64,000 nt of DNA, taken from the NCBI RefSeq assembly GCF_002939705.1, contig NZ_MDCB01000001.1, positions 186,001-250,000 of the forward strand, read 5' to 3'. This DNA comes from Xanthomonas albilineans. Lineage in GTDB: Bacteria; Pseudomonadota; Gammaproteobacteria; Xanthomonadales; Xanthomonadaceae. This document shows, piece by piece, positions 7,629 through 62,200 of the stretch; within the stretch, counting starts at the first letter, position 1; the number at the start of each line of letters is the position of its first letter. The notes beneath the pieces were generated by a model. The model made no database searches and was not told the DNA's origin. It saw only the letters and a program-made list of their open reading frames with translations. Position numbers and translations under genes: made by a program.

Positions 7629-7687
7629 GTTGGGAAGTGCGTGCTGGAGTAGAAGGGGAAGGCACCTTTTCGGCTGCCATGGGCATG

Positions 7688-17167: not shown

Positions 17168-17239
17168 CGTGGTGTCTCGGAAGGTAGAGAACGTTCGGAT
17201 GGTGGAGCGGCATGTCGCGTGGTAATGGGGCATGCGAAC

Positions 17240-17470: not shown

Positions 17471-17552
17471 GCGGTGAAAAGCGCATTTTCTGCGTGTGAT
17501 CTATCACGCTGTGCTCGCCGGTGAGCGCATGCATTGCAAATGCTTGGCGCAC

Positions 17553-17584
17553 AAAAAACCCCGGGAGATTGCTCTCCCGGGGTT
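17553..17584 (-). terminator. Rho-independent terminator after a receptor gene
   Basis: On the minus strand CCCCGGGAGA pairs with TCTCCCGGGG around a 4-base loop and is followed by six T. This is the clearest terminator in the window. Confidence 0.92.
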
Positions 17585-17629
17585 GGACTTGCTCGCAGTG
17601 GTGCCCTTGTGTGGAGGTCCGCCTGTGGA

Positions 17630-45648: not shown

Positions 45649-46655
45649 ACCATGGCCTCCGCACCGCTGCCGCCGAGGACGATCACACCCTCATCGGCCA
45701 GGCGTCGCACGATGGCAAGAATTTCCTTCTGCGCCGCTTCTACGTCGGACAGACGCACCGGGCCGCGTGCTTCCATGTCTTCCAGCAGGATTTCGGCGGC
45801 ACGCTGGGACATGTTCTTGGTGATCTTTTCGCGCACCTTGATGTCGGCACCGCGCAGGGCCAGACCGAGGCGGTCGCCGCTGACCTCGCGCAACATGGTC
45901 TGTAGTCCGCGGTCGTCCAGTTCGACCAGGTTGTCGAACACGAACATCAGATCCTGGATGCGGCTGCCCAGGTCGGCGTCGATCTTGCTGATCGCTGCCA
46001 GCACGCCTTGGTCCGAGCCGCTCTCCATGAAGTTGAGGATGTTGGCGGCGACCTTGACGCCGCCGACGTTGGATGATTTCAAGTTCTGGTTGCCGGAGAA
46101 CTGCCGCTCCATGATCTCGTTGAGCTCGTTGAGCGCATTCGGTGGAATCCCATCGAGGGTCGCAATGCGCATCAGCACGTCGGCGCGGGTGCGTTCGGGC
46201 AGTAACTTCAGCGCCTCTGCGGCCTGGTCGCTATCCAGATGCGCCATCACGATGGAAATGATCTGTGGGTGTTCGTTGCGCACCAGGTCGGCGACCGCGC
46301 GCGGGTCCATCCACTTCAGCGTGTCAAGGCCGGTGGTGTTACGCCCGAGCAGGATGCGGTCGATCAGGCTGCCGGCCTTGTCGGCGCCTAATGCCTGTAC
46401 CAGCACGTTGCGGATGTAGTCGTCAGCACCCACGCCCAGTGAGGTTTTGCTGCCGAGCTCGGCATTGAAGTCCTCCATCACCTTCTCGACTTGATCGCGC
46501 GAGATGCCGGTCAGCGTGGCCATGGCGATGCCGATCTTCTGCACCTCTTTGGGGTCCATGTGCTTGAGCACTTCCGCCGCATCAGCCTCGCCGAGCGATA
46601 GCAGCAGCACCGCGGCGCGCTGGGTGCCATTCATCGGGCTTGCCTCAGGCTTCAC
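45645..46655 (-). CDS. fliG: Flagellar motor switch protein FliG
   Basis: 336 residues with the three FliG domains: N-terminal FliF-binding part (LLLSLGEADAAEVLKHMDPKE), middle domain with the EHPQ motif (LVRNEHPQIISIVMAHL) and C-terminal torque domain (MFVFDNLVELDDRGLQTML, then charged residues). It transmits stator torque to the rotor. It overlaps the 3' end of fliF by 11 bp. Confidence 0.98.
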   Translation of the reverse strand: MKPEASPMNGTQRAAVLLLSLGEADAAEVLKHMDPKEVQKIGIAMATLTGISRDQVEKVMEDFNAELGSKTSLGVGADDYIRNVLVQALGADKAGSLIDRILLGRNTTGLDTLKWMDPRAVADLVRNEHPQIISIVMAHLDSDQAAEALKLLPERTRADVLMRIATLDGIPPNALNELNEIMERQFSGNQNLKSSNVGGVKVAANILNFMESGSDQGVLAAISKIDADLGSRIQDLMFVFDNLVELDDRGLQTMLREVSGDRLGLALRGADIKVREKITKNMSQRAAEILLEDMEARGPVRLSDVEAAQKEILAIVRRLADEGVIVLGGSGAEAMV

Positions 46656-48354: not shown

Positions 48355-48365
48355 CGTCTTCTACC

Positions 48366-48728
48366 TTACAGCGGCATGTTCATCACGTCCTGGTACGCCT
48401 GGACGAGTCGGTTGCGGACTTCCACCGTGGCGCGGAACGCCACCTGGGACTGCTGTGCGGCCAGCATGACTTTGGCCAGGCCGGCATTGGGATCTCCCAA
48501 TTCGAATGCTTTGGCAAGATTGCCTGAGTTCTGCTGAGCCTCGTTGACGCCACTGATTGCGTTGCGCAGGGTCTCGCTGAAGCTCGGACCTTGGACGCCC
48601 TGGTTGCCGGTCAGGCCCTCGATCGCATTACTACGCGCCGTATCGCCCACCCGCGCCGGGGCTGCCTGGCCGACTTGGCCCTGGTAGCTGCGGATTTGCG
48701 AAAGAATGGAGCTGATGGAGTCGCTCAT
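48366..48728 (-). CDS. fliE: Flagellar hook-basal body protein FliE
   Basis: A 120-residue FliE. The C-terminal half is typical: FSETLRNAISGVNEAQQNSGNLAKAFELGD, then LAKVMLAAQQSQVAFRATVEVRNRLVQAYQDVMNM. It links the MS ring to the rod. It is the first gene of fliEFGHIJK and starts 39 bp after a sigma-54 promoter core. Confidence 0.97.
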   Translation of the reverse strand: MSDSISSILSQIRSYQGQVGQAAPARVGDTARSNAIEGLTGNQGVQGPSFSETLRNAISGVNEAQQNSGNLAKAFELGDPNAGLAKVMLAAQQSQVAFRATVEVRNRLVQAYQDVMNMPL

Positions 48729-48969: not shown

Positions 48970-51900
48970 TCAGTCGGGCAACCAGGCCGTTCGCCATTCC
49001 TCCAGGTTTGCACCCTGTAACATCCAGTCGCGTTTTACTGCGGCTTGCAGTGCGGCGCCTGCCGCGGTGCGCGCGTGGTCATCGGCAAGATGCGCGCGGA
49101 TCGCCGTGACCCAGTCGCGGAAACGGTTCTTCACCAAGGTCGTGGGCAGTCCACCGTCACGGTAGGGTGGCAGGTCGCTGGCCACCACCGGGTAGCCGCA
49201 GGCACCGTATTCGAGCAGGCGCAGGTTGCTTTTGCAGCGGTTGAACAGGTTGTCTTCCAGCGGCGCCAGGGCCAGATCCAGTTCGAGCGCGGCCAGGGCC
49301 TGGGGATAGCGGGCGAAGTCCACACCGGCATGCACCTCGGCCACATGCGGGCGCAGCCGCTCCGGGCACATGCCCATGAAGACCCAATGCACTTCGCCGG
49401 CCAATGCCTTGACCACGTCGGCGATCAGTTCGAGATCGCCGGTATGGCTGGCGCCACCGGCCCAACCGACCCGTGGCTTGTCCGAGATCGCGCGTGCCGG
49501 TACGGCCAATGCGCCCCACATATCCGGGGCCAGGCGATTGCGCACGACCCGGATGTCCGCGTGCAGGCCGGCAAGGGCATCGGCCAGGGCCGGCGTGGAC
49601 ACCACCACCCGGTCCACCAGGCTGGCGGCACGGCGCAGCGAACGCAGCACGTCTTTGGGCATCTGCGCGCGGTGTACGCTCTTCAATGGCAGGTTGGGGA
49701 GGTAGTCGTCCAGTTCGTAGACTTTGAATGTGTCGCAGAAGCGGCGTAGTCGTTCCATTTGCGCCAGTTCCGCATCGCCGACCCGGCGCTGCACGATCAC
49801 CGCGTCGACGCCGATGCGTTCGGTTTCCACCGGATCGAGCAGTCGTGCGTAGTAAACGCCATCGATCTGTCCGGCGGTGGCGAGCGCCTGAAATGGCTGG
49901 ATCACGCGGTAATGACCGCTGCCGAACGCATCGCCCGGATGCGCCAGCACGCGCGGCAAGGGCTTCCACGAAAGTGGCTGCCAGGAAAAATCGGATTCGC
50001 CCAATTTGAAGCCGCCAGGCTGGTCCAGGCTCAGACTGGGCGAATGGGCGGGGTCGTGCGCCATTGCCGGTAGCCAGCGCTGTAGCAGGGCATCAGTGGC
50101 GGCGTCCGCACGCGCTGCTGCGGTGGGTTGCAGCAGCAGCGCATCGGGTGTCCAGAGCGTCCATTGGCCCTGCGCCGCGGCACGCAGGCAGAGATCCACA
50201 TCAGCGCCGCCTGTGCCGAACGCGGCGGCGTCGAAGCCCGACAACTGCTCGAACAGTGCGCGCCGCACCAACAGGCAGCGCTCGGAGACGGCGCTGTAAC
50301 GATGCGTCACCTGCAACCGACCCATATAGCCAGGCTGTGCCATCGCCTCGCCGGCAAACGCGTGGCCGGCGTCACGCAGCAGGCCCGGCAATAGCCCGGC
50401 GTGGGTGATCGCGCCATCGCTGGAAACGCCCTTGGCGCCGACGATGCCCACTTCCGGACGCTGTGCGTGGTTCATCAGTGCGTGCAGCCAACTGCCCTGG
50501 ACCAGATTGCTGTCAGCGTCCAGGAACAACAGGTACTCGCCCTGTGCTTGCGTCGCCGCCAGATTGCGGGCTTCGGCCTGACTGACGCGTTGTTCCAGCG
50601 CGAACACGCGGATGCGGCCGTTGCCCAACTCGGCCACGGCTTGCATCCATTGGGTGATGGCGGGTGCGATGCTGACGTTGTCGACCAGAAGCAGTTCGTA
50701 AGCCGGGTAGGTGGTGTGCTCGAGCAGGCTGACCACCACACTTTGCAGTGCCGATAGATTGTCCTGTCCCAGCAAGACGATCGAGACCGGCGGCTGTTGG
50801 GCGTGGCCGTAGTCGATTCGCCACAGTCCGCCTGGCAGCGCATCGGCCCTGGCGTCGGTGTAACCGCGTGCCAGCAGATGCGCCACGATGGCCTGTTGGC
50901 GGGCGTCAGCGCCGGCATCGGCCGGTGCCGGTGAGGTAATCAACAGCGGTTCGGCTAGATGCGCGATGCTGGCGCCGGCATCGCGCAGGAACAGGCGCAG
51001 GATCAATTCCAGTTCGCTGGCGCCGTCGTAGCGGGGATCGAAACCCCCCAGTTCGCGGACCAGGGTGCGGCGGAAAATCCAGTGGCCAGCGGTGGCGAGC
51101 GGGTTGCCCAGCAACAGATCCAGGTCCGGGTCCGGGCGCAGCACCGGCGCCAGGGTCTGTGCGTCCAGCGCCAGCCATTCGTCCGCATACAGCGCGCTGC
51201 ACTGCGGATGCTGGGCAAGTTCCAGCAGCAGGCGCAGCAGGCCGCCCGCGCAGAAGCGGGTTCCAGCGACGACGCGCAGGCACCAGTCGCTCGCCGCGCT
51301 TGCCTCCACGGCGGCGTTCATCGCGGCGGCATCGGCGTTGGCTGCCAGCGGCGCTAGCGATTGCACCCTCGGGTCCGGCCACGGCGTCGCGGTGCCCTCG
51401 CTGAGGACGAGGACGCGCAGGTGGACGAAAGCGGCGCCGTCCAGCAGCAGGCTGTGCAGCGTCGTGTCCACGGCGGCGATCTCGGTTGCGCGCGCATCGA
51501 TCAGCACCGCGAGCCGTGCCGGGCCGCCCAGTGCGGCCATGCGTGCGTCGATGAGCGCGCGTTGGACCGGCGTCGGTTGCCGGCGCGCCTGCCAGTCGCG
51601 TAAGGCGTCTTGTATGCGGCTACGTGCATAGGCGGTTTGGATGGCCTGTATCAGGTCTACCGGTGCGGTGCTGCCGCCGGCCAAGGGCGTCACCCCGACC
51701 AGACGCACGTCGCCATCTCCTCGATACCAGCCCATCGCGCGCACGCCGCGGCGGAAATCGTCGTGGCCCTGATCGCCGATCCCCGGCTGATCGCGGCCGG
51801 TCTGGCTGTACTGTTCTTGCGACACGCGAAAGCGGGTCAGTGGCTTGGCCAGCAAAGCCAGATCGCCGCGATGCAGGAGTTTGGCGTACATCGACAGGTC

Positions 51901-52494
51901 GCCGACCCAATGCGTCACCCGGCCGTCCAACGACATCAACTGATCGCCGAACTCCAGCAAATCGCGGCGCCGGCACAGCACGCAACTGGGTTCGCCGATG
52001 AAGTTGATGGTGTGGTCGGCGAGGAAGGACAGCAGTTGCGGACCGTCCAGCCGCACATCGTCTGCGAATGGGAAGGCGGTGGCGGGGATGTCTTCTAGTG
52101 GTGCATCGTCGCTGCCGATGCGCTGGCGCCGCGACGAGGCCAGCACCACATTCGGGTGGCTGCGCATGGCGGCGACCAGCGCCGCGATGCAGTCCGTTTC
52201 CAGCACATCGTCGTCGTGCAGGAACTTCAGGTACTCGCCCTCGGCCAGCGCGATGCCGCGCACGGTGCTGCCCAATTCGCCGTAGCGGCTCGGGTTGCGG
52301 TGGTAGCGGATCGGCAGGCGTGCGTCGGCGCGACGGCGCTCCACGATGGCCGCGATCGCGTCATCGGGGTTGTCGTCGCAGATCACCAGCTCCAGCGTCG
52401 GGTAGGTCTGCGCGAGTACGCTGTCGAGCGTCTGCTCGAAGTAGCGTGCCTTGTAGGCCGGCATGACCACGCTGACCAGGGGGAGGGGACTCAT
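48970..52494 (-). CDS. Multi-domain glycosyltransferase, probable flagellin glycosyltransferase
   Basis: 1174 residues with three modules. Residues about 1-270 are a GT2 domain (VSVVMPAYKARYFEQTLDSV; DDD motif in FLHDDDVLE). Residues about 560-800 hold a second GT2-like domain (VSIVLLGQDNLSALQSVV; LFLDADSNLV). The C-terminal 310 or so resemble a GT4-type (GT-B) transferase (VGWAGGASHTGDLELIADVV; LLEYGACGYPVVASD). Large enzymes like this next to fleQ and fliE in polar flagellates build the glycan on flagellin; here flagellin itself is outside the window. It has its own sigma-54 promoter at 52555-52570. Acceptor and sugars cannot be read from sequence. Confidence 0.88.
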   Translation of the reverse strand: MSPLPLVSVVMPAYKARYFEQTLDSVLAQTYPTLELVICDDNPDDAIAAIVERRRADARLPIRYHRNPSRYGELGSTVRGIALAEGEYLKFLHDDDVLETDCIAALVAAMRSHPNVVLASSRRQRIGSDDAPLEDIPATAFPFADDVRLDGPQLLSFLADHTINFIGEPSCVLCRRRDLLEFGDQLMSLDGRVTHWVGDLSMYAKLLHRGDLALLAKPLTRFRVSQEQYSQTGRDQPGIGDQGHDDFRRGVRAMGWYRGDGDVRLVGVTPLAGGSTAPVDLIQAIQTAYARSRIQDALRDWQARRQPTPVQRALIDARMAALGGPARLAVLIDARATEIAAVDTTLHSLLLDGAAFVHLRVLVLSEGTATPWPDPRVQSLAPLAANADAAAMNAAVEASAASDWCLRVVAGTRFCAGGLLRLLLELAQHPQCSALYADEWLALDAQTLAPVLRPDPDLDLLLGNPLATAGHWIFRRTLVRELGGFDPRYDGASELELILRLFLRDAGASIAHLAEPLLITSPAPADAGADARQQAIVAHLLARGYTDARADALPGGLWRIDYGHAQQPPVSIVLLGQDNLSALQSVVVSLLEHTTYPAYELLLVDNVSIAPAITQWMQAVAELGNGRIRVFALEQRVSQAEARNLAATQAQGEYLLFLDADSNLVQGSWLHALMNHAQRPEVGIVGAKGVSSDGAITHAGLLPGLLRDAGHAFAGEAMAQPGYMGRLQVTHRYSAVSERCLLVRRALFEQLSGFDAAAFGTGGADVDLCLRAAAQGQWTLWTPDALLLQPTAAARADAATDALLQRWLPAMAHDPAHSPSLSLDQPGGFKLGESDFSWQPLSWKPLPRVLAHPGDAFGSGHYRVIQPFQALATAGQIDGVYYARLLDPVETERIGVDAVIVQRRVGDAELAQMERLRRFCDTFKVYELDDYLPNLPLKSVHRAQMPKDVLRSLRRAASLVDRVVVSTPALADALAGLHADIRVVRNRLAPDMWGALAVPARAISDKPRVGWAGGASHTGDLELIADVVKALAGEVHWVFMGMCPERLRPHVAEVHAGVDFARYPQALAALELDLALAPLEDNLFNRCKSNLRLLEYGACGYPVVASDLPPYRDGGLPTTLVKNRFRDWVTAIRAHLADDHARTAAGAALQAAVKRDWMLQGANLEEWRTAWLPD

Positions 52495-52554
52495 AAACGC
52501 TAGGCCGTCTCAAAAGAAATGACATGGAGCGCATCGCGCCCGATCCATGCCCGA

Positions 52555-52570
52555 TGCAACATGTATGCCG
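52555..52570 (-). promoter_or_regulatory. Predicted sigma-54 promoter of the glycosyltransferase gene
   Basis: Minus strand: CGGCAT and TTGCA with the GG-N10-GC core, about 61 bp before the start codon at 52494. Confidence 0.7.
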
Positions 52571-52719
52571 GTCCTTGCGCAGCGTCGCGGTGGCGGCATG
52601 CTGCTGACCAGGCTCGGTGGTTTCGCTTGCTTACTTTTGTCGATACGGGAGGGCAGCGTCCTGCGTTCGATAGCGGCGTGCAGTTTTTGATCTGCGCCAT
52701 GCGCAAACGCGCCGCGCGG

Positions 52720-53853
52720 TTATTCCACGTAGAGGACGGTATCGAAGAAGTACATTGCATACTGGCGCAGACGCAGTTGCGCATCCGGCAGGATTTGGTC
52801 GAGGACGGCGACGATCTCCAGCAGGTCGAGCGCGTGGTGGTAGCAGGTGATGGCCATGCGCGGGCGGCAGCGCTGGATTAGTCCGGCGGCGCCACGCAGC
52901 ACCTGCGGCTCGAATCCCTCCACATCCATTTTCAGCATCGTGGCGCGTTCGATCAGGTCGTCCAGGCGGACACTTGGAACCATCACCGTGCCGTTGGCAT
53001 CGAGCCGGCTGCCCATGGTGCCTTCCGCGTGGAAGGCCAGGGTTCCAGCGACATCGGAGACCGCTGCATTGTGCAGGACCGTGCGCCCGGCATCGTCCGC
53101 GAGGTCGCGTTGCAGCGCGGCGAAGTTGGCCGGATCCGGCTCGAACGCGTGGATCGATGCGTAGCCATGGCGCGAGGCGGCGCGAAACTTCTTCACCGTG
53201 TCGCCGCGGTAGGCGCCGATGTCCACGTAGTGCTCGTTCGCACCGATCCGCAGCGGATGTGCGTTGGTGGGGTAAACGGAGAAGTATTCCTGCTCCATCG
53301 GGCACAGCACGTCCAGCAACGGTCGCCGGTCGCCGTTCATCCGCATTTGCAGCACGGCATCGAGCGTGCGCATGCTCAGGGGATCGGCGAGGCGTTCGCG
53401 TAGTGCGGCGAATTGCGCGCTGTGTGCTAGGGTCAGCTCGCGGGTTATACGACCGGTCTGATACACCAGTGGGATATCCAGGGCGTACAACAGCTCCGGA
53501 AGATCGATGCGGCGCCCGCTGCCTGCGCCTTGCAATTGCGCGAAGTACAGCCATGCGGTCGGCATGAATGCGCAGTTGATGGTGGGTAGCGCCGCCAGTC
53601 TCGGGTCGTTCCGGAACGCGTTGGTAGGCCGGATATCACTGAAACCCATGTCGGCGATATGCCCCTTATACAGCACATCGTCCAGGGCAATGATCTTGAT
53701 GCCCGGAGCGCGCTCGACCAGAGCCGCCGCCGCATGGGTTGCATAGATCCCACCGAGAGTCGAGCTGGGTGCCATAAAGATCGCGCCGCCCGCGTCTGCG
53801 CAGTGTGCAATCAGGTCTGTTTCGTCACGAGGCGTGCTTGAGGTGTCGGTCAT
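52720..53853 (-). CDS. FkbM-family SAM-dependent methyltransferase
   Basis: 377 residues from the ATG at 53853 (MTDTSSTPRDETD). The C-terminal 190 or so are an FkbM methyltransferase: SAM site HYVDIGAYRGDTVKKF, HAFEPDPANFAALQ, and the diagnostic MLKMDVEGFEPQVLRGA. The N-terminal half (FMAPSSTLGGIYATHAAAALVE) resembles the ThiF-like or sugar-binding N-terminus of some two-domain FkbM proteins, but I do not recognise it. In flagellin-glycan islands such enzymes O-methylate a sugar. It follows the hexapeptide gene by 173 bp and precedes the glycosyltransferase. Confidence 0.82.
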   Translation of the reverse strand: MTDTSSTPRDETDLIAHCADAGGAIFMAPSSTLGGIYATHAAAALVERAPGIKIIALDDVLYKGHIADMGFSDIRPTNAFRNDPRLAALPTINCAFMPTAWLYFAQLQGAGSGRRIDLPELLYALDIPLVYQTGRITRELTLAHSAQFAALRERLADPLSMRTLDAVLQMRMNGDRRPLLDVLCPMEQEYFSVYPTNAHPLRIGANEHYVDIGAYRGDTVKKFRAASRHGYASIHAFEPDPANFAALQRDLADDAGRTVLHNAAVSDVAGTLAFHAEGTMGSRLDANGTVMVPSVRLDDLIERATMLKMDVEGFEPQVLRGAAGLIQRCRPRMAITCYHHALDLLEIVAVLDQILPDAQLRLRQYAMYFFDTVLYVE

Positions 53854-54026
53854 GGATGCACTCGGGAGATGGGGGTTGGTGGAGATTGCTGCGATGGTCG
53901 CCAGAACAGTTGCCAGCATTGGCAAGCTTGGAAGCCCAGCCATGTCGCTCTCCCATACTTGTATAACGTTGCAATGTCTTGCTACTGGACGGTTTTAGGT
54001 CATTAGCGTGCAACCACTGTGTGCTG

Positions 54027-54644
54027 TCAGCACAGAATCCGTGCTCCGTTCGGCATCAGCGCATCGTAAAAGCAACGGTCGGGCAATACCTCCGGGAGCA
54101 TCCCAGGAAGCAACCATTCGCAATGCCGGCCGATCTTGCTGTCGCTGCGGGTCATGCTGGCGCTGCCCAGGGTACTGCCTTGGCCGATCTGAGTGCCGCG
54201 TCCAAGATGGACGCCGGCATGCAGTGTGGCGCAGGCGCCGATTCGTACATCCTGTTCGACAATCACCTGCCGTTCCAGCCAGGTACCCGCGCCGATGCTG
54301 CTGCCCGCCGCGAGATTGCAGCCAGGCCCCACGTACACATTGCCCATCAGCCGCACGCCGGCATCGAGATGCGCCTGCGGCCAGACCAGATCGATGGTGC
54401 GGTAGCCGGCCAGACGCACGTCGGCCAGCAGCTTGTGTCGGGACTGATTGACCGCCCGTTCGTCGAGCGCGACGAACACTTCAGTGTCCGCCGCCGCATG
54501 GCTAGTGTGCAGTTCGCTCAGGTCGAAGTTGTAGCGGTCGGAGGAGTGCAGCGCGAGGCTGACATGGACCAAACCACACGCCTGCGCGGTGCGTTGTGCT
54601 TGTTCCAGCGCGCTGCCGTCGCCGAGCAGCAGCAACGTTTTCAT
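54027..54644 (-). CDS. Left-handed beta-helix (hexapeptide) transferase-like protein
   Basis: 205 residues. The first 85 or so are a short alpha/beta part (KTLLLLGDGSALEQAQR). The rest shows a hexapeptide-repeat pattern (VYVGPGCNLAAGSSIGAGTWLERQVIVEQDVRIGACATLHAGVHLG) typical of NeuD/PglD-like sugar N- or O-acyltransferases. The start at 54644 overlaps the Rieske gene by 4 bp. It differs strongly from the other hexapeptide gene at 55805-56452. The acyl donor and acceptor are unknown. The last 35 residues (LLPGMLPEVLPDRCFYDALM) leave the repeat pattern. Confidence 0.78.
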   Translation of the reverse strand: MKTLLLLGDGSALEQAQRTAQACGLVHVSLALHSSDRYNFDLSELHTSHAAADTEVFVALDERAVNQSRHKLLADVRLAGYRTIDLVWPQAHLDAGVRLMGNVYVGPGCNLAAGSSIGAGTWLERQVIVEQDVRIGACATLHAGVHLGRGTQIGQGSTLGSASMTRSDSKIGRHCEWLLPGMLPEVLPDRCFYDALMPNGARILC

Positions 54645-55780
54645 CGTGCTTCCTCCAGCACGTTGGTGCGGTACCACAGGTGCTGGCGGACCAGTTCGGT
54701 TTCGTAGTCGCCGTGCATGCTCGCTGGGGAATGGGGGCCGAGGTGCGCTTGCAGGCGTTCCAACACGGCGGTGTCCTCGGCGATGACCTGATGCTCGATG
54801 CGGATCAATGTACTCAGCAACGCAGTGAAATCGGTACGCTCGTTCTTGCGGCGCGCGGTAGCCACCCACAGGTGGTAGTCGGTTTCATTGGGCGAGATCG
54901 GGTCGTACTGCTGTAGCACGAAGGAGTCGCCGCGTACGCTGTAGAAGTTGACGTTCGGATAGACGAACCAGTTGTAGAACGCGGAATCCTCGCCATAGCG
55001 CTCGCACAGTGGGCGGTACCAATTGTCGTGGTCGGCCATCTCCGCCTTGGCAGGGAAACTCAGCGCATCGAGGGTAGGGGCGTGGCCTGCTTGCAGCAAC
55101 TGCTCGACCACGGATGGCACTTCGGCCGGCCGTTCCACCTGAGCGGATGACTTGGGAGTGGCGGTCATCAGCGGATTGAAGGTCTTTGGATGGATGAACG
55201 GTAGATGGTTGTAGTCCTTCACGTTCTCCATGTTGAGCTTCCAGTTGTAGCGCACGCGATGGCAGCTGTAGATGATCTGCGAATCCAGGTGTGAGGACGC
55301 GACGCGTACGTTCTCCAGGAACTCCGGAGTAAATTGTTCCTCCAATGGCAACGGTTGTCCGGCCAGATTCACGAACAGCAGTTCACCGACCTGCTGCAGG
55401 TGCAGCTTGGTCAGGCAGATGCCGGCTTTTTCCTCTGCGGTGAATTGGTACAGGCCGGAATTGGGCAACCCACGCAGCTCGCCCTCGGCGCCGAACGACC
55501 AGGCATGGTACGGGCACACCAAGGGGCGTTTGCCGTGGGGTTCGCTCTGGATCGCCGATTGCCGGTGCGGGCATTGGTTGAGGAAGGCGCGGATGCCAGC
55601 GTCGGTGCGTTGCACCAGCACCGGCACGCCGGCGACCTGACGGGCGAAGAATTGGTTGCGCTCGCGCACCAGCGAGGCGAAGCCGACGAAGATCCATAGC
55701 CGACCGAATAGCCGTTGTTGCTCCAGGCGAAAGGTGTCCGGGCTGGTGTAGTGCGTGGCGTCGAGTGCGTGACGGGGCAT
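54641..55780 (-). CDS. Rieske-type [2Fe-2S] non-heme iron oxygenase
   Basis: 379 residues. The Rieske cluster ligands are Cys70/His72 (NQCPHRQ) and Cys89/His92 (VCPYHAW), a C-x-H-x16-C-x2-H pattern. The catalytic domain carries NWKLNMENVKDYNHLPFIHP, where His192 and His197 fit the mononuclear iron triad, and an acidic region near the end (IAEDTAVLERLQAHL) that probably supplies the third ligand. Such enzymes hydroxylate, demethylate or desaturate small molecules using electrons from a reductase; none is seen nearby. Its place among sugar and acyl genes suggests oxidation of the acyl group or sugar, but that is inference. It starts 24 bp after the NeuD-like gene and overlaps the next hexapeptide gene by 4 bp. 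Confidence 0.9.
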   Translation of the reverse strand: MPRHALDATHYTSPDTFRLEQQRLFGRLWIFVGFASLVRERNQFFARQVAGVPVLVQRTDAGIRAFLNQCPHRQSAIQSEPHGKRPLVCPYHAWSFGAEGELRGLPNSGLYQFTAEEKAGICLTKLHLQQVGELLFVNLAGQPLPLEEQFTPEFLENVRVASSHLDSQIIYSCHRVRYNWKLNMENVKDYNHLPFIHPKTFNPLMTATPKSSAQVERPAEVPSVVEQLLQAGHAPTLDALSFPAKAEMADHDNWYRPLCERYGEDSAFYNWFVYPNVNFYSVRGDSFVLQQYDPISPNETDYHLWVATARRKNERTDFTALLSTLIRIEHQVIAEDTAVLERLQAHLGPHSPASMHGDYETELVRQHLWYRTNVLEEAR

Positions 55781-55804
55781 GCGCGAGGATCCTGGTCGCC
55801 AGTA

Positions 55805-56452
55805 TCAACGTTGGAAGATGACGCGCGCCGGATTACCGGCCACGGTGACCTGCGGCGACACATCCTTGACCACCACACTGCCGGCGCCGATCACCGCGCC
55901 ATCGCCGATGGTGATCCCGGGGATCAGGGTGGAATGCGGGTGGATGACCACGTCGCTGCCGATGGTGACGCCGCCACCGACGAACACGAAGTTGCCGATC
56001 TGTACGTAGTCGCCGATGACCACGTCGTGGCCGATGATGGTGGTGGCGAGGATGGTGACGAACTCGCCGATGCGGCAGTCCGCGCCGATCGATACGCCGA
56101 CTTCGAACAGGCTGCCGCGCCCGATCGCGGTGGGCGAGGCCTCGCGCAGGCGTGGGCGCAGCACCATGAAGTCCGCGCCGCGCGCCAGCAGTGGCTGGCT
56201 GTAGCGGCGGCGTGCGGCCGGCTCGCCGAGCGCGCACACGAACAGGTCGCCGGGGACTGGCGCGTAGCTATCCGGCTCGCCGACGATCGGCCAGGGGCTG
56301 GTCGTCGCCAAGGTGCTGCGGCTATCGAGGAAGCCCTTGATGTCCCAGGCGTGTCCGTAGGCCGGGTCGTCATGGCGGGCCATCGCCGCGATGCCGCGGC
56401 CGAAGCCGCCGGCGCCGATGATCAGCACGTGTTGAGGAGGGCTGTCATTCAT
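55805..56452 (-). CDS. NeuD/PglD-like sugar acyltransferase
   Basis: 215 residues. The N-terminus is a Rossmann-like sugar-binding domain (HVLIIGAGGFGRGIAAMA); the C-terminus is a left-handed beta-helix of hexapeptide repeats (IGADCRIGEFVTILATTIIGHDVVIGDYVQIG, GNPARVIF at the end). Enzymes of this shape transfer acetyl or longer acyl groups to the 4-amino group of UDP- or dTDP-linked 4-amino-4,6-dideoxy sugars. It overlaps the SDR gene by 4 bp, so it probably uses the acyl chain made by the neighbouring ACP, synthase and reductases. The natural acyl group is inferred, not seen. Confidence 0.85.
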   Translation of the reverse strand: MNDSPPQHVLIIGAGGFGRGIAAMARHDDPAYGHAWDIKGFLDSRSTLATTSPWPIVGEPDSYAPVPGDLFVCALGEPAARRRYSQPLLARGADFMVLRPRLREASPTAIGRGSLFEVGVSIGADCRIGEFVTILATTIIGHDVVIGDYVQIGNFVFVGGGVTIGSDVVIHPHSTLIPGITIGDGAVIGAGSVVVKDVSPQVTVAGNPARVIFQR

Positions 56453-57228
56453 GCGAATTCCACGCCGCCGTCCATGCTGAAGGCCTGTCCGGTCACCTTG
56501 CTGCTGGCGTCGGAGAGGAAGTACAGGCATGCCAGGGCCACGTCGTTGGGGGCGCCGATGCCGAGCGGATAGCGCTTGCGGCTTTCCTCGAACCAGGCCT
56601 TGTCCTCGTTGATCAACGAGGTTTCGACCAGGCCAGGGCACAGTGCATTCGCACGGATCTTGCGTCGCGCCAGTTCCAGAGCCAACGGCCGCAACATGCC
56701 GATCAGCGCGGCCTTGGAACCGGCATAGGGACCGACGCCGACGGTGCCGGTGAGCGCGGCAATGGAGGAGAGGAAGACGATGGAACCACCGGGACGCAGC
56801 GACTGGCGCGCGAGCAGATGCCGGGTGAGCATCGTCGGCGCGATGTAGTTGATCGTTATCACCTCGTTGAGGAAGCTCTCGCTGACCAGTTTCATCGGTG
56901 ATAGGCCGCGGATGCCGGCGCTATGGACTACGCCGTCGAGCGGGCCGCTTTCGGTCGCCAGCCGTTGCACTGTGGCCGCATCGCTCAGGTCGCCGGCGAA
57001 TACGCGGTGGCCTTCACCGGGTAATGTGTCCATGACGGCTTGCAGCCGCGCTGCGTCGCGCCCAGCGATGAGCAGGCGCGCCCCGGCGCTGACACAGGCC
57101 CTGGCCACGGCTTCGCCGATGCCCTTGGATGCGCCAGTGACCAGCACGGTCTTGTCGTGTACGCCGTAGAGCTCGCGCAGCAGTCCGGATGTCGCATCAG
57201 CAACGGACATGGGGTTCTCCAGGGTCAT
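56449..57228 (-). CDS. Short-chain dehydrogenase/reductase (FabG-like), second of a pair
   Basis: 259 residues. The cofactor site is TGASKGIGEAVA (residues 31-42) and the catalytic Ser154/155, Tyr168 and Lys172 lie in FLSSIAAL and GPYAGSKAAL. Its overall form matches 3-oxoacyl-ACP reductases and 3-hydroxy-sugar dehydrogenases. The ATG at 57228 overlaps the preceding SDR stop by 4 bp; an in-frame ATG at 57210 is also possible. It is about 40% alike to the first SDR by eye but diverges in the substrate loop, so the two probably act on different substrates (acyl chain against sugar). Confidence 0.88.
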   Translation of the reverse strand: MTLENPMSVADATSGLLRELYGVHDKTVLVTGASKGIGEAVARACVSAGARLLIAGRDAARLQAVMDTLPGEGHRVFAGDLSDAATVQRLATESGPLDGVVHSAGIRGLSPMKLVSESFLNEVITINYIAPTMLTRHLLARQSLRPGGSIVFLSSIAALTGTVGVGPYAGSKAALIGMLRPLALELARRKIRANALCPGLVETSLINEDKAWFEESRKRYPLGIGAPNDVALACLYFLSDASSKVTGQAFSMDGGVEFA

Positions 57229-57986
57229 AGGCGGATCGGCAGGGAGATCCCGCCGTCGATGGTCAAGGTGCTGCGAGTAATCCAGCGGCTGGCGTCGGAC
57301 AGCAGGTAGACGGCGCCGTTGGCGATATCGTTCGGGTCGATCCGTCCCAACGGAGTCAGCCCAATCTTGTCGTCCATGTCCGCGGTGCTGCCCAACCTGC
57401 TCAGCATCGGCGTGTCCACGTAGCCTGGGGCGATGCAGTTGGCGCGAATGCGATGTCTGGCATGTTCCAGCGCCAACGAGCGCACCGCGGCTTCCAGCGC
57501 CGCCTTGGATGCGCCGTAACCGGCGCTGGCCTGTGGTGCCGCACGTGCGGTCAAGGCGGACACGTACACCAGCGCCGCCCCCTCGTGCAGGCGGCGCTTG
57601 GCCAGCAACTGCTGTGTCAGCAGGATCGGCGCCAGGTAGTTCACCGCCAGCATCTGCTGCAAATGCTTTTCGGCGGCCATCCGGAACGGCACCAGCGCGG
57701 CAATGCCGGCGCACGAGGCCAGGCCGTGGTAACGCTCGGCGGCTTCAAGCAGGCGGGTGCGGGTCGCCTCCTCGGTCAGGTCGCCGGCGACCGTGCGGTG
57801 TTCGCTGCCGTGCAGGATGGAAGCCACCGCCTGCAGCCGCGTCTCGTCGCGTCCATTCAACACCAGCGTGGCCCCCAGCCGTGAGCATAAGGTGGCGACG
57901 GCTGCGCCGATGCCGGAGGAGGCGCCGGTCACTAGGATGGTCTTGCCCTTGAGTGCAAAGGCGTCTGTGTTTGCGGCAGGGGCCAT
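57225..57986 (-). CDS. Short-chain dehydrogenase/reductase (FabG-like), first of a pair
   Basis: 253 residues. It has the TGASSGIGAAVA cofactor motif (residues 20-31) and the catalytic Ser143 (VYVSAL), Tyr157 and Lys161 (YGASKAAL), followed by ANCIAPGYVDTPM, typical of SDRs. The start at 57986 lies 2 bp after the KAS III stop. Next to ACP and KAS III the simplest role is reduction of a beta-ketoacyl-ACP to a 3-hydroxyacyl-ACP for sugar acylation. Confidence 0.88.
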   Translation of the reverse strand: MAPAANTDAFALKGKTILVTGASSGIGAAVATLCSRLGATLVLNGRDETRLQAVASILHGSEHRTVAGDLTEEATRTRLLEAAERYHGLASCAGIAALVPFRMAAEKHLQQMLAVNYLAPILLTQQLLAKRRLHEGAALVYVSALTARAAPQASAGYGASKAALEAAVRSLALEHARHRIRANCIAPGYVDTPMLSRLGSTADMDDKIGLTPLGRIDPNDIANGAVYLLSDASRWITRSTLTIDGGISLPIRL

Positions 57987-57988
57987 AC

Positions 57989-59029
57989 TCACGACTCGAT
58001 CAAATCGGGAAACACGGCGCCCTCGATGTCCACCAGGCAGGTGCCCCACGACAGGCCGATGCCGAAGCCGCACAGCAGCACGCGCTTGCGGCCGGACTCC
58101 AGTTGCTTGTTGATCCGTGCGGTCATGGTGACCGGGAGCGAGGCGCCACTGGTGTTGCCGAAGTCGTGCAGGGTGGAGGGAACCTTGTCCGCTGGCAGGC
58201 CCAGCTTCTTGCGGATGGTCTCGTTGATTATCCGGTTGGCCTGGTGGAACACGAAGTAGTCGATCTGGTCCTTGGGCACGCCGCTGTAGTCGAGCAGTTT
58301 CTGCACTGCTGGCGGCACCCGCTGGGTGGAGAAACTGAGCACCGCCACCCCGTCCAGTTGCAAGTCCACGCCGCGGTGCCAGTAGTCGTTTTCGTCGGCA
58401 CGGTAGGGCATCAGATGCTGTACCCCGATTGGCTCGCGATGCCCGCCCACCGGCAGGATGATCGCGCGGTGGCCGCTGCCATCGCTGTTGAGATCGAAGT
58501 ACATCGGCGGCGCATTGGCGCTGAATTCCAGCGCGGTCGCGGTGCCGGAATCGGAAAAGATCGGATCGTCGAAGGTGGCGCTGCGGTCGCCGACCAGCAG
58601 CAGCCCTTTCTTGACCCCGCCGGAGGCGATCATTGCGCCAAGGAGATTGATCCCGAACGGATACGCCGAGCAGCCCAGGTTGACGTCGAAGGCGACGGTC
58701 GTGTGCGGCAAGCCGAGTCGGTCTTGCAGAATGATTGCGGTCGCCGGGACCGGATAGTCCGGCGATTGGGTGACCACGATCAGCGCATCGATGTCCTCGC
58801 GTTGCCACTGCAGTTGTTCCAGCAGCACCTGTGTTGCATCGAAAGCCAAATCGGAAAAGCACTGCCAATCCGCGGCCATGCGCCGGGTTTCGATGCCGAT
58901 GTTGCGCACTAGCCGCTCGCGCTCGGAACGGATCTGCGGCCGGCAATCGGTCAGATTGGAGACGACCCGCTTCGGGACACAGGTCGCCATGCCGGCAAAA
59001 CGCACGTTGTGCAGCGTGGACGTGGGCAT
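57989..59029 (-). CDS. 3-oxoacyl-ACP synthase III (KAS III/FabH-like)
   Basis: 346 residues of thiolase fold. The catalytic triad is Cys120 (VNLGCSAYPFG), His262 (YFVFHQANRI) and Asn292 (FGNTSGASLPV). KAS III condenses an acyl-CoA with malonyl-ACP. In flagellin-glycan islands it is thought to make the beta-ketobutyryl unit later reduced to 3-hydroxybutyryl. It starts 3 bp after the dedicated ACP gene. It is a second KAS III specialised for the glycan rather than housekeeping FabH, judged by its neighbours. Confidence 0.93.
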   Translation of the reverse strand: MPTSTLHNVRFAGMATCVPKRVVSNLTDCRPQIRSERERLVRNIGIETRRMAADWQCFSDLAFDATQVLLEQLQWQREDIDALIVVTQSPDYPVPATAIILQDRLGLPHTTVAFDVNLGCSAYPFGINLLGAMIASGGVKKGLLLVGDRSATFDDPIFSDSGTATALEFSANAPPMYFDLNSDGSGHRAIILPVGGHREPIGVQHLMPYRADENDYWHRGVDLQLDGVAVLSFSTQRVPPAVQKLLDYSGVPKDQIDYFVFHQANRIINETIRKKLGLPADKVPSTLHDFGNTSGASLPVTMTARINKQLESGRKRVLLCGFGIGLSWGTCLVDIEGAVFPDLIES

Positions 59030-59032
59030 GGA

Positions 59033-59257
59033 CTATGCCTCGGCCAGCTGATAGAGATCGCCCACGGTGATGGCCGCAGTCAGGTGCTCGCCGGTGATGG
59101 TCTTGCCGTATTCCATATCGAACATCACGATGACCCCCAACGCCGCCAGCGAATCCCATTCGGGCAACGCCCGCAACACGGTTTCCAGGTTCACTTCGAC
59201 CGGAGTCTGAAAATCCGTCGCAGACAGGAAGTTTTCGATAAATGCGGCTTGGCTCAT
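59033..59257 (-). CDS. Dedicated acyl carrier protein
   Basis: 74 residues, an acidic helical carrier. Ser36 in PEWDSLAALGV is the phosphopantetheine site (DSL motif). It overlaps the aminotransferase stop by 4 bp and precedes KAS III by 3 bp, so it is the acyl carrier of this island. A start upstream of 59257 would lengthen it but would run into the aminotransferase. Confidence 0.9.
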   Translation of the reverse strand: MSQAAFIENFLSATDFQTPVEVNLETVLRALPEWDSLAALGVIVMFDMEYGKTITGEHLTAAITVGDLYQLAEA

Positions 59258-60423
59258 GCTGTTTCCATGGAATTTGCGAAAGAGGAAGGGGTGTAACTGG
59301 ACGTTGAAGCGGGTGCGATGTCGCCCGCCGCGGCGATCAGGTCGGCGATTGCGTCGACCTGTTCCGGAGTCAGACCGGGATAGATCGGCAGGCACAGGAC
59401 CCGCTCGGACATCTGCCGGGCAACCGGCAGCCCTGCGGGGGCCGCCGAGGGCAGGCCGCGGTACATGGGAAAATCGCTGATCAGCGGGTAGAAATAACGC
59501 CGGACCACAATGCCGTGGCTGCGCATCAAGCGATGCAGGGCGTCGCGGTTCAATGGAAACGCCTCTTCGATGAGAATCGGGAACGAGGCGTAATTGGCCA
59601 GCCCTGGCGCACGTGGCGGCAGGCAGCGGACTCCAGGCACTTGCTCCAAGCGTCGCCGGTAATGCGTATCGATCGCGCCGCGCTGCGCCAGTGCGGCATC
59701 GATATGTTGCAGTTGCAGCAGGCCGAACGCGGCGTTGATCTCGCTCATCTTGCCGTTGATGCCGGTAGCGACCACGGTGGTTTCATCGACGAAACCGAAG
59801 TTCTTCAGCCGGCTGATGCGTTGGTACGTTTTCGCGTCCGGGCACACGATGGCGCCACCTTCGAAGGTGTTGAACACCTTGGTGGCATGGAAGCTGAGCA
59901 CGCTCAGGTCGCCGTGACGCAGCAGCGAGCCTCCCGCGTCCTTGACCCCGAACGCATGCGCGGCGTCGTAGATGACCTTGAGGTTGTAGGTGTCGGCGAT
60001 GCGCTCGATTGCTGCCGTGTCGCAGGGCGTGCCGTAGCAATGCACCGGCATGATTGCGGTGGTGTGCGGGGTGATCGCCGCCTCGATCTTGAGCGGATCC
60101 AGGTTCATCGTCAGTGGGTCGATGTCGACGAACACCGGCTTGATCCCTTTCCACAACAGGGCATGTGTAGTGGCGACGAACGAGTAGGGCGTGGTGATGA
60201 CCTCGCCGGTGATGCGTAGCGCCTGCAGTGCGGTGAGCAAGGCCAGTGTGCCGTTGGTCAGTAGCGCCAGATGGCTGACGCCCAGGTAATCCGCCAGCGC
60301 TTTTTCCAGTGCCTGGTGCATGTCGCCACCGTTGGTCAGGATGCGACTGCGCCAGATCTTTTCCAGATACGGTACGAACTCCTCCAGGGGCGGCAGCAGC
60401 GGACTGGTGACGGGAATGGGCAT
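59254..60423 (-). CDS. vioA: DegT/DnrJ/EryC1-type sugar aminotransferase (VioA-like)
   Basis: 389 residues. PLP-dependent aminotransferase for nucleotide sugars: PLP lysine at Lys182 (SFHATKVFNTFEGG) and the cofactor aspartate in VIYDAAHAFG. The ATG at 60423 (MPIPVTSPLLPP) gives the normal length; upstream codons are out of the family. Members nearest this type convert dTDP-4-keto-6-deoxyglucose to dTDP-4-amino-4,6-dideoxyglucose (viosamine), and in Xanthomonas flagellar islands a vioA gene lies just here, next to rpoN2. The exact sugar could be a related 4-amino sugar. It is the first gene of the island, 71 bp after a sigma-54 promoter, and overlaps the ACP gene by 4 bp. Confidence 0.85.
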   Translation of the reverse strand: MPIPVTSPLLPPLEEFVPYLEKIWRSRILTNGGDMHQALEKALADYLGVSHLALLTNGTLALLTALQALRITGEVITTPYSFVATTHALLWKGIKPVFVDIDPLTMNLDPLKIEAAITPHTTAIMPVHCYGTPCDTAAIERIADTYNLKVIYDAAHAFGVKDAGGSLLRHGDLSVLSFHATKVFNTFEGGAIVCPDAKTYQRISRLKNFGFVDETTVVATGINGKMSEINAAFGLLQLQHIDAALAQRGAIDTHYRRRLEQVPGVRCLPPRAPGLANYASFPILIEEAFPLNRDALHRLMRSHGIVVRRYFYPLISDFPMYRGLPSAAPAGLPVARQMSERVLCLPIYPGLTPEQVDAIADLIAAAGDIAPASTSSYTPSSFANSMETA

Positions 60424-60712: not shown

Positions 60713-62200
60713 TCAGCTGGCCAGTTCGGCCTGATCGCGGTCGATGCCGTATTTGCGCAGTTTTTCGACCAGTGTGGTGCGGCGAAGACCCAGCAACTGC
60801 GCTGCGTGCGCGACCACACCCTGGGTGCGCTCCAGCGCCTCGTTGATGAGCGCCAACTCGATGTTGGCCATGTGTCCGCGTAGATCCAGCCCGCTTTCCG
60901 GCAGCGTTGCAGCCACCTGCGTAGCCTGTGAGTACTCGCCATGCAGCTTGCCGCCGGTACGCAGGTCGACCACGTTGGGTAGCCGCCGTGGTTCCGTTGT
61001 CGTGATCGGCGACGGTGGCGCAGAGACGTCGATTGAGGAGGCGAAATCGCCGCGGTAACGCGCCGGCAAGTCCTGCACCCGCACCAGACTGCCCGGATGC
61101 AAGACCGCCAAGCGTTCGACCAGATTGGTCAATTCACGCACGTTGCCCGGCCACTCGTAGTTGCACAATGCTTGCAGCGCCTCTTCGGAAAAGCGTACCT
61201 CGCCGCGTCCAGTGCGTGCCAGTTGCGCGGCGATGGTGTGGACCAGCGCGGGCAGATCGTCGTTGCGTTCGCGCAGCGCCGGCATCTCGATCGGGAACAC
61301 GTTGAGGCGGTAGAAAAGGTCTTCCCGGAATTGGTTGTCGGCGATGCGTTCTTCCAAGTTGCGGTGGGTCGCTGCGATCACCCGTACATTGCAGCGGATG
61401 GTGACGTTGCCGCCGACGCGCTCGAAGCTACGCTCCTGCAGTACGCGCAGCAGTTTGACCTGCATCGGCAGACTCATGTCGCCGATTTCGTCCAACAACA
61501 GCGTGCCGCCTTCTGCCATCTCGAAGCGACCCTTGCGCGCGCTCAGAGCGCCTGTGAAGGATCCTTTTTCGTGGCCGAACAGTTCGCTTTCCAATAGGTC
61601 TGGCGGGATCGCGCCGCAGTTGATCGCGACGAATGGGCCGTCGCAGCGCGGCGATTTCTGGTGGATTGCGCGGGCCACGACTTCCTTGCCGGTGCCGGAT
61701 TCGCCGAGCACTAGGACCGTGGTGTCGAAGGCAGCCACTTGGTCGATCAGCCGCCGCAAAAGGGTGACCGCCTCGCTATTGCCGGTTGGCCCGTTGTCTT
61801 GTGCGGCGCCGGCCTGGTGCTCGGCATCCAAGCGTTTGAGGCTGGCGCGGCGCAATAGTGTCTCCAGTTGCGCATGGCGCAGCGGTGCTTCCAGTTGCCA
61901 CACATTCGCCTCGTGCAGACCATGCCGTTGTGCGAACGCCTGGGCGTCGTCCTTGAGTAATAGCACTGGGGGTGGCAACGGACTGCGTGCGACCCAGCCG
62001 AAAAATGCATCGGCCTGCACTTGGTCCTCTAGCCCGCCGACCAGGATCGCCATCCACTCGGTCTGGCGGTGGCGACCAGGCTGGACGTCGGCGACATCGG
62101 TGACCCAGCGTGGGTTGAGATCCATGAATTCGAGCAGGCTGACAGTACGCTCGGCGCGTAAGGCGTCGTCATCGATCACCAGGATCCGCGATTCGCTCAT
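60713..62200 (-). CDS. fleQ: Flagellar master activator FleQ (sigma-54-dependent)
   Basis: 495 residues. An N-terminal FleQ-type receiver-like domain (residues 1-125) is followed by the AAA+ domain with Walker A GESGTGKE (166-173), the sigma-54 contact loop as GSFTGA (213-218, [15 protein letters not shown]), Walker B LLLDEIG (234-240) and [14 protein letters not shown]-terminal Fis-type helix-turn-helix ([20 protein letters not shown]) closes it. It activates sigma-54 flagellar promoters and in other polar flagellates responds to c-di-GMP and FlhG/FleN. The true start is at 62200, overlapping the receiver gene by 4 bp; the longer frame is a shadow. Confidence 0.95.

What the first reader, a model, noticed from the sequence alone, without database searches (positions are those of the whole stretch)
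52720..60423. Flagellin-glycan island with its own acyl-synthesis module
A VioA-like aminotransferase is followed by a dedicated ACP, KAS III with an intact Cys-His-Asn triad, two SDR reductases and a NeuD/PglD-like acyltransferase. Most neighbours are separated by 0-24 bp or overlap by 4 bp. Read together, it looks like a short pathway that builds a beta-hydroxyacyl chain and loads it on a 4-amino-4,6-dideoxy sugar, comparable to the modified viosamine known on Pseudomonas syringae flagellin. The additional Rieske oxygenase and second hexapeptide protein suggest a product not identical to that.
Basis: partly seen in the sequence, partly recalled or inferred. Interest (0 to 1): 0.75.

Follow-up and report, generated by a model that had tools for sequence, protein, structure and literature searches.

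The report
Xanthomonas flagellin sugar island with oxygenase
A known type of ten-gene island, sitting inside the flagellum genes of a Xanthomonas, probably makes an unusual acylated amino sugar for the flagellum, and it carries an oxygenase that nearly always travels with a partner protein looking like an acyltransferase that has lost its active site.

Summary
All named genes are present at the stated places, in one tight run between fleQ and fliE, with KAS III, SDR, aminotransferase and Rieske site residues intact. The island as such is known: it has the place and gene number of gigX1-10 of X. oryzae (reported to determine flagellin glycosylation), and nearly the same gene order is tabulated as XCV2000-2013. 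The P. syringae comparison is fair as homology (aminotransferase 69%, glycosyltransferase 38%, KAS III and acyltransferase 34%), not as identity: a second SDR, a Rieske oxygenase, the second hexapeptide protein (Hex2) and an unrelated methyltransferase are extra. What I did not find described is that Rieske and Hex2 form a unit: 89 of 96 homologues in 79 loci have Hex2 directly downstream, their distances correlate at 0.91, pairs are swapped and stacked, and one pair lies elsewhere in the genome. Hex2 is NeuD-like but mostly lacks the NeuD histidine (11 of 88 keep it). I propose that the pair oxidises the acylated dTDP-sugar, with Hex2 presenting it. Product and Hex2 role are untested. New variant of a known kind.

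The parts
59254..60423 (-). VioA-like dTDP-4-keto-6-deoxyglucose 4-aminotransferase (DegT family)
   Evidence: best PDB sequence 2po3, 5.1e-66; K182 kept in 55 of 55; 69% to the 372-aa VioA of L188
59033..59257 (-). dedicated acyl carrier protein, 74 aa
   Evidence: DSL motif kept in 73 of 73; only a weak PP-binding hit, E 0.027
57989..59029 (-). KAS III (VioS-like)
   Evidence: C120/H262/N292 kept in 73/74/74 of 74; best PDB sequence 4efi, 1.4e-60
57225..57986 (-). SDR a (ketoreductase-like)
   Evidence: Y157 and K161 kept in 70 of 70
56449..57228 (-). SDR b (second SDR)
   Evidence: Y168 72 of 73, K172 71 of 73
55805..56452 (-). NeuD/PglD/VioB-like sugar N-acyltransferase
   Evidence: TIGR03570 above cut-off; best PDB sequence VioB 7txp, 2.7e-21; H142 in 59 of 74, Tyr in 15
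54641..55780 (-). Rieske non-haem iron oxygenase, type I
   Evidence: C70, H72, C89, H92, H192, H197, D336 in 88 of 88 and D189 in 87 of 88
54027..54644 (-). Hex2: NeuD-like left-handed beta-helix protein, Rieske partner, Gln at the NeuD His column
   Evidence: hhalign to NeuD 98%; 11 of 88 keep His there; Hex2 follows 89 of 96 Rieske homologues in 79 loci
52720..53943 (-). FkbM-family methyltransferase, variable between islands (start codon uncertain)
   Evidence: TIGR01444; no match to the vio-type VioM; variable
48970..52494 (-). 1174-aa glycosyltransferase, two GT2 regions and a weak GT1-like C-terminus (VioT-like)
   Evidence: 38% over 1195 columns to the 1173-aa VioT-type protein of L188
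60495..60509 (-). sigma-54 (-24/-12) promoter-like site upstream of vioA
   Evidence: 1 mismatch to the recalled consensus; same form at -82 to -91 in 18 of 18 genomes with the module; 22 of 2000 shuffles of the window's upstream stretch reach 1 mismatch or fewer
60713..62200 (-). fleQ-like activator (context)
   Evidence: ORF; start placed; named by inspection and by the gene order in PMC3826837
62595..63995 (-). rpoN (sigma-54) gene (context)
   Evidence: ORF; named by inspection and gene order
46645..48728 (-). fliE and fliF (context)
   Evidence: ORFs, named by inspection and gene order; FliF used as query

Best explanation
This is the Xanthomonas flagellin-glycosylation island (gigX type). 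RmlB-made dTDP-4-keto-6-deoxyglucose, supplied from elsewhere in the genome, is aminated by VioA to a dTDP-4-amino-4,6-dideoxy sugar. KAS III and the dedicated ACP make a beta-ketoacyl-ACP, most simply acetoacetyl-ACP; an SDR reduces it to the 3-hydroxyacyl-ACP; the NeuD/VioB-type enzyme moves it to the 4-amino group (all inferred from families and from the P. syringae genetics). The Rieske oxygenase with its partner Hex2 then oxygenates the acyl-amino sugar, most likely by hydroxylating the acyl chain. Hex2, a NeuD-like beta-helix without the NeuD histidine, binds and presents the dTDP-acylsugar rather than acylating it. FkbM may O-methylate, and the 1174-aa glycosyltransferase puts the sugar on flagellin or on a rhamnosyl stem. 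Shown here: gene content, intact site residues, flagellar and sigma-54-like setting, Rieske-Hex2 co-inheritance, loss of the Hex2 histidine. Inferred: every chemical step, the order of steps and the role of Hex2. No reductase for the Rieske is among the ten genes, so it probably borrows one. The stated confidence is for the island making an acyl-amino sugar that the Rieske-Hex2 pair oxidises; the site of oxidation and the presenting role of Hex2 I hold at about 0.4.
For: Syntenic module in 18 of 20 genus genomes between fleQ and fliE; sigma-54-like site in 18 of 18; gigX1-10 under RpoN2/FleQ and reported to determine flagellin glycosylation in X. oryzae (passages); homology to P. syringae-type vio genes, whose mutants lose or change the viosamine cap; VioB as closest solved NeuD relative and 2po3, recalled as DesI, for VioA; RmlB over its cut-off elsewhere in the genome. 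For the pair: 89 of 96 Rieske homologues followed by Hex2, 0 of 12 unrelated Rieske loci; distance correlation 0.91 against 0.56 for Rieske-NeuD and 0.24 for Rieske-KAS, Mantel 0 of 2000, 0.90 after allowing for KAS and ACP; 17 of 79 loci hold two or more Rieskes; in L136 the pair is of another type than its SDR and NeuD neighbours; the His loss.
Against: No product, structure or mutant was examined. Only 27 of 79 loci (13 of 47 outside Xanthomonas) show FliC, FliD, FlgL, FliE or FliF within the fetched DNA, so elsewhere the module may serve other glycans. 32 of the 79 loci are Xanthomonas, so the counts are not independent. 7 of 96 Rieskes lack an adjacent Hex2, one of them at a contig edge, and three two-KAS clusters (L185, L186, L189) carry a different Rieske with no Hex2 found, so Hex2 is not needed for every Rieske of this sort. 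NeuD itself has Tyr for His in 15 of 74, so the histidine is a weaker marker of activity than hoped. Co-inheritance can come from linkage, although NeuD lies only 24 bp from the Rieske and follows it less closely.
Confidence: 0.6

Rival explanations
1. Hex2 is a second, active acyltransferase with a different catalytic base, acylating the hydroxyl that the Rieske creates.
For: Related to LpxD, perosamine N-acetyltransferase and NeuD; 7 of 20 orphan-type copies keep His at the NeuD column; NeuD tolerates Tyr in 15 of 74.
Against: No histidine column is shared across 88 Hex2 proteins, and only four positions reach 97% (N66, R69, G80, G172).
Confidence: 0.25
2. The Rieske acts on the sugar ring or on an N- or O-methyl group, not on the acyl chain.
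For: The best NCBIfam match is the glycine-betaine monooxygenase model (far below its cut-off) and carnitine monooxygenases are among the best PDB matches; their C-N cleaving chemistry is recalled. FkbM methyltransferases occur near the module in many loci.
Against: These matches cover about residues 1-238 at low similarity, and the top PDB match is a phenylpropionate-dioxygenase-like entry. FkbM varies between islands while the pair is constant.
Confidence: 0.25
3. The island makes the same N-(3-hydroxybutanoyl)-viosamine as P. syringae, and Rieske and Hex2 serve another path.
For: VioA 69%, glycosyltransferase 38% over full length, one KAS III and one NeuD-type acyltransferase as there.
Against: Rieske-Hex2 sits inside the run in 18 of 18 module genomes and with the two closest KAS IIIs of a KAS-seeded search of 348 genomes (E <= 1e-180), while the two vio-type stretches (L187, L188) show no Rieske.
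Confidence: 0.12
4. The genes act on O-antigen, with the flagellar position incidental.
For: 34 of 47 non-Xanthomonas loci show none of five flagellar genes in the fetched DNA.
Against: fleQ-fliE position in 18 of 20 and sigma-54-like site in 18 of 18; gigX reported to determine flagellin glycosylation by MALDI-TOF (passage; the paper itself not read).
Confidence: 0.05

Closest known systems
gigX1-10 genomic island of Xanthomonas oryzae pv. oryzae (Yu et al. 2018, doi 10.1111/mpp.12543; paper not held, known here only from passages in PMC8657755 and PMC6859632)
   Same: ten genes, RpoN2/FleQ-regulated, flagellin glycosylation; place between fleQ and fliE is recalled for gigX
   Different: no sequence comparison made; no glycan structure seen in any text read here
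XCV2000-XCV2013 in the gene table of PMC3826837 (passages read)
   Same: fliE, glycosyltransferase, variable genes, hypothetical protein (at the Hex2 position), Rieske, acetyltransferase, two SDRs, 3-oxoacyl-ACP synthase, ACP, aminotransferase, fleQ
   Different: the variable genes differ; presence or absence only, Rieske-Hex2 link not discussed in the passages read
P. syringae viosamine island vioA-vioM-vioT-vioS-vioB-vioR-acp (PMC3927599; abstract and parts 1 and 2 of 3 of its Results read)
   Same: aminotransferase, KAS III, SDR, acyltransferase and large glycosyltransferase homologous to the vio-type genes of L188; an ACP in both
   Different: one SDR, no Rieske, no Hex2; methyltransferase of another family (Methyltransf_11/23 against FkbM)
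P. aeruginosa PAK glycosylation island orfA-orfN (only through PMC3927599)
   Same: orfA, B, C, D, E correspond to VioA, ACP, VioS, VioR, VioB in that paper's table
   Different: not compared by sequence here
NeuD/PglD/VioB acyltransferases
   Same: Hex2 aligns with NeuD over most of its length
   Different: 77 of 88 Hex2 copies lack His at the NeuD histidine column

Membership tests
gigX-type flagellin glycosylation island | about ten genes between fleQ and fliE | tested here: met
   (the place of gigX itself is recalled)
gigX-type flagellin glycosylation island | sigma-54/FleQ control | tested here: inconclusive
   conserved -24/-12-like site in 18 of 18; regulation itself not testable here
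gigX-type flagellin glycosylation island | sequence orthology to X. oryzae gigX genes | not tested
   no locus titled X. oryzae among those; X. euvesicatoria L093 has the same order up to Hex2
gigX-type flagellin glycosylation island | flagellin mass depends on the genes | not testable with these tools
   needs mass spectrometry
P. syringae viosamine island | homologues of VioA, VioS, VioB, VioR, VioT | tested here: met
   69, 34, 34, 37 and 38% identity to L188, taken as a vio-type island by ORF sizes
P. syringae viosamine island | VioM homologue and no other tailoring genes | tested here: not met
   FkbM has no match to VioM; Rieske, Hex2 and a second SDR are extra
Rieske non-haem iron oxygenase (alpha subunit) | CxH...CxxH cluster and D/H/H/D iron site | tested here: met
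   C70-H72, C89-H92, D189, H192, H197, D336 in 87-88 of 88; ligand roles recalled
NeuD/PglD/VioB acyltransferase (for Hex2) | sequence family | tested here: inconclusive
   hhalign 98% to NeuD; TIGR03570 60.9 bits, below its cut-off of 160.8
NeuD/PglD/VioB acyltransferase (for Hex2) | catalytic histidine | tested here: not met
   His in 11 of 88, window copy Gln; catalytic role recalled from PglD
acyl carrier protein | phosphopantetheine serine in DSL | tested here: met
   73 of 73; Pfam hit below cut-off

The most novel reading that the evidence does not exclude
Rieske oxygenase and a dead NeuD-like beta-helix form a two-protein oxygenase unit, perhaps matching their threefold symmetries (recalled for both folds), in which the beta-helix carries the acyl-sugar nucleotide. 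Units of different specificity (type I, type II, orphan type and others) are swapped and stacked to write different oxygenation patterns on one conserved flagellin sugar core, and the separate pair at G000:C6:29560 acts on the flagellin glycan in trans.
Probability: 0.3. Interest if true: 0.7.

Novelty: new variant of a known kind. Interest (0 to 1): 0.48.

Why it matters
Flagellin glycans are thought to shield the flagellin epitope from plant hydrolases (PMC8364246, passages), so it matters which chemistry varies in them. If right, a Rieske oxygenase working with a catalytically dead acyltransferase-like partner on a nucleotide sugar would be an unusual arrangement for both enzyme families, and the swapped and stacked pairs would give a readable genetic basis for differences between flagellin sugars that share one core. 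The prediction is simple: about plus 16 Da per active pair.

Tried and rejected
Rejected: that the set is a chance stretch (synteny; conserved upstream site); that Rieske and Hex2 are merely near each other (0 of 12 unrelated Rieske loci have Hex2 within the 1.5 kb fetched; adjacency alone would have tied NeuD to the Rieske as closely); that FkbM is the VioM counterpart by descent.

Against my reading or weak: type I islands and the orphan pair go together in 12 of 13 genomes against 1 of 7 others (Fisher 0.0012), but of 4 phylogenetically independent pairs only 2-3 go the same way (none the other way), which cannot reach significance. The Xenophilus, Acidovorax (L107) and Variovorax (L112) modules nearest to the orphan pair show none of the five flagellar genes in the fetched DNA; those with FliC (L110, L158) branch next to them. 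Two of 20 genus genomes (G006, G008) show no match at 1e-5 for ACP, KAS III, SDRs, NeuD, Rieske or Hex2 and keep VioA (74%) and the glycosyltransferase (59%). A class-wide sample matched the Rieske profile in 2 of 369 genomes at E <= 1e-40 and the KAS profile in 4 of 369 at E <= 1e-70, own genome included in both: the module is rare. In the Rieske and Hex2 trees the four Rieske groups need 5 and 6 changes, where 3 is the least possible (shuffles 42). The sigma-54 pattern alone is not enriched in the window (111 against 96.6 expected, 7 of 100 shuffles as high); only its position and conservation count.

Literature: terms with Rieske were searched (15 of 218 papers listed, Rieske count 0 in each; 9 of 9 listed; 14 of 14 listed). 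Of the listed papers holding Rieske together with flagella or flagellin I opened only PMC3826837; the others (such as PMC12322963, PMC9956245, PMC8448359) have titles on other subjects and were not opened. Further searches without Rieske. The library is open-licence only and lacks the 2018 gigX paper, so absence from print is weakly shown.

Rows dropped: 4 of 100 Rieske matches under 70% coverage, 8 of 91 pairs that were truncated or interrupted (5 pairs from the window, its genome and genus were added, giving 88); only 61 loci with all six families, first pair of each.
Full report
What is there. On the minus strand of window 48970-60423 lies one run of ten genes between fleQ and fliE: VioA-like aminotransferase, ACP, KAS III, SDR a, SDR b, NeuD/VioB-like acyltransferase, Rieske oxygenase, a second hexapeptide protein (here Hex2), an FkbM methyltransferase and a 1174-aa glycosyltransferase. 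Neighbours from vioA to Hex2 overlap by 4 bp four times or are 3, 2 and 24 bp apart. Flagellin, FliD, FlgL and FlgK genes lie beyond rpoN, and flagellar and chemotaxis genes continue below fliF; these names come from inspection of the ORFs and from the gene order in PMC3826837. The organism is a Xanthomonas: the nearest named record is Xanthomonas sp. GPE 39 (L089, Rieske 95%); I infer X. albilineans or close kin.

Active sites. Among relatives, KAS III keeps Cys120, His262 and Asn292 (73, 74, 74 of 74), the SDRs keep Tyr-x3-Lys (70 of 70 in SDR a; 72 and 71 of 73 in SDR b), VioA keeps Lys182 (55 of 55) and the ACP its DSL (73 of 73). The Rieske keeps the eight recalled metal-site residues in 87-88 of 88. 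The ACP scores below Pfam's cut-off. Hex2 is the exception. It is related to NeuD over most of its length (hhalign probability 98%), yet at the column of the NeuD histidine only 11 of 88 Hex2 proteins have His; the window copy has Gln. NeuD itself has His in 59 and Tyr in 15 of 74.

Setting. A sigma-54-like site of the form TGGCATRTSGCTTGC stands 82-91 bp upstream of vioA in 18 of 18 genomes that carry the module, the window included; the two genus genomes without the module have other, different best sites. Reviews state that RpoN2/FleQ controls gigX1-10 in X. oryzae and that this ten-gene cluster determines flagellin glycosylation by MALDI-TOF evidence (passages of PMC8657755 and PMC6859632). 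The 2018 paper itself is not held. A table in PMC3826837 lists nearly the same order as XCV2000-2013, with a Rieske protein and, beside it, a hypothetical protein where Hex2 lies. The island is therefore known.

Comparison with P. syringae. A KAS-seeded search of 348 genomes from the family of G202 (taken as Pseudomonadaceae, since its FlgL is 72% like that of Pseudomonas sp. 8AS) found six with a match at E <= 1e-60. In G745 (L188) VioA, a large glycosyltransferase, KAS III, NeuD and one SDR stand together without a Rieske. Its ORFs are 372, 241, 1173, 340, 213 and 253 aa plus an ACP-like frame with possible starts of 56 to 88 aa, against 372, 241, 1173, 338, 213, 253 and 69 in the published table; I take it as a P. 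syringae-type viosamine island. G740 (L187) looks alike, but its fetched stretch begins inside the glycosyltransferase, so VioA was not seen. Against L188 the window has VioA 69%, glycosyltransferase 38%, KAS III 34%, acyltransferase 34%, SDRs 36-37% and no match of FkbM to VioM. G533 and G524 (KAS E <= 1e-180) carry Rieske and Hex2; G616 and G679, and G118, have two KAS genes and another Rieske without a Hex2 match. P. syringae genetics (PMC3927599) show that vioA, vioB, vioR and vioT are needed for the N-(3-hydroxybutanoyl)-2-O-methyl viosamine cap and vioM for its methyl group. The same acyl steps are the best guess here, with extra oxidation.

The Rieske-Hex2 unit. A scan of genome contigs seeded on the Rieske alone gave 79 loci (the best 80 of 145 confirmed stretches were kept), 32 of them Xanthomonas. 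Of 96 Rieske homologues with at least 70% coverage, 89 have a Hex2 on the same strand, from 8 bp overlap to 326 bp downstream between match ends; 7 do not, one at a contig edge. None of 12 unrelated Rieske loci has one within the fetched 1.5 kb. Seventeen of 79 loci hold two or more Rieskes. Over 61 loci the pairwise distances correlate 0.91 between Rieske and Hex2 (Mantel 0 of 2000), 0.56 Rieske-NeuD, 0.47 Rieske-SDRb, 0.24 Rieske-KAS, 0.78 KAS-ACP and 0.64 NeuD-SDRb: three blocks that are inherited rather independently. ACP, KAS III, an SDR, NeuD and Rieske occur together in 72 of 79 loci. In the genus, five of 20 genomes carry a second allele of the SDR-to-Hex2 block (Rieske 31-35%) while VioA, ACP, KAS and glycosyltransferase stay 70-90% alike, and the three states need five changes on a FliF tree. 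In X. melonis (L136) type I SDRs and NeuD stand with a type II Rieske-Hex2, and L101 has both pairs in a row.

A pair elsewhere. The window's genome has another Rieske-Hex2 pair at G000:C6:29560-30666 and following, beside a purT-like gene (by inspection) and with no other island gene matched in the 12 kb fetched. The Rieske of this type was matched in 13 of 20 genus genomes; of these, ten places were fetched and all have Hex2, as has an eleventh, G001, whose Rieske is cut short. In a FastTree tree without bootstrap it nests with second pairs of Acidovorax, Variovorax and Xenophilus modules (starred branches), so it may be a displaced part of the same pathway; those three modules show no flagellar gene in view. 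Its link to type I islands (12 of 13 against 1 of 7) is not significant once kinship is counted.

How it most likely works, and how sure. Family knowledge gives dTDP-4-amino-4,6-dideoxyglucose, a KAS III/ACP/SDR 3-hydroxyacyl group and its transfer by NeuD; RmlB is present elsewhere. I then place Rieske-Hex2 on the acylated sugar nucleotide, hydroxylating the chain, with Hex2 as binding partner. An acyl-amino sugar oxidised by the pair I hold at 0.6; the site of oxidation and the presenting role of Hex2 at about 0.4. Rivals are listed. The product, the order of steps, the reductase and the role of Hex2 are not shown.

Novelty. The island is known; the constant, swapped and stacked Rieske-Hex2 unit and the histidine loss were not found in the searches named under Tried and rejected, which are limited. 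Kind: new variant of a known kind.

Noticed in passing
G000:C6:29560-30666 and the gene after it (L002, L075): A second Rieske-Hex2 pair outside the island, beside a purT-like gene; its Rieske is matched in 13 of 20 genus genomes and is cut short in G001.
   Followed up: partly
L126, about 5090-6822: X. arboricola pv. juglandis record in which a cut-short fliD match runs straight into a cut-short KAS III match: a deletion seems to have removed what lies between.
   Followed up: no
L131, L142: Type II modules on contigs titled Gemmatimonas MAGs: transfer between phyla or mis-binned contigs.
   Followed up: no
L092: Contig titled as a Massilia MAG whose module is 82-93% like the Xanthomonas ones, possibly a mis-binned Xanthomonas contig.
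   Followed up: no
L071 (G006) and L074 (G008), fleQ to fliE: Two genus genomes have other long ORFs (up to 594 and 1772 aa) in place of the acyl module while keeping VioA and a diverged glycosyltransferase.
   Followed up: no
L060, L067, L072, L073, upstream of the glycosyltransferase: Short second pieces matching the glycosyltransferase, like scars of past recombination in the variable part of the island.
   Followed up: no
window 3191-19918: Five long chemoreceptor-like genes close together with very similar C-terminal halves (by inspection).
   Followed up: no
L168:6448-7869: The FliD-like protein carries a long run of serines in its middle.
   Followed up: no
L185, L186, L189: Two-KAS clusters with VioA-like genes, NeuD and another Rieske but no Hex2 match: a third architecture.
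   Followed up: partly
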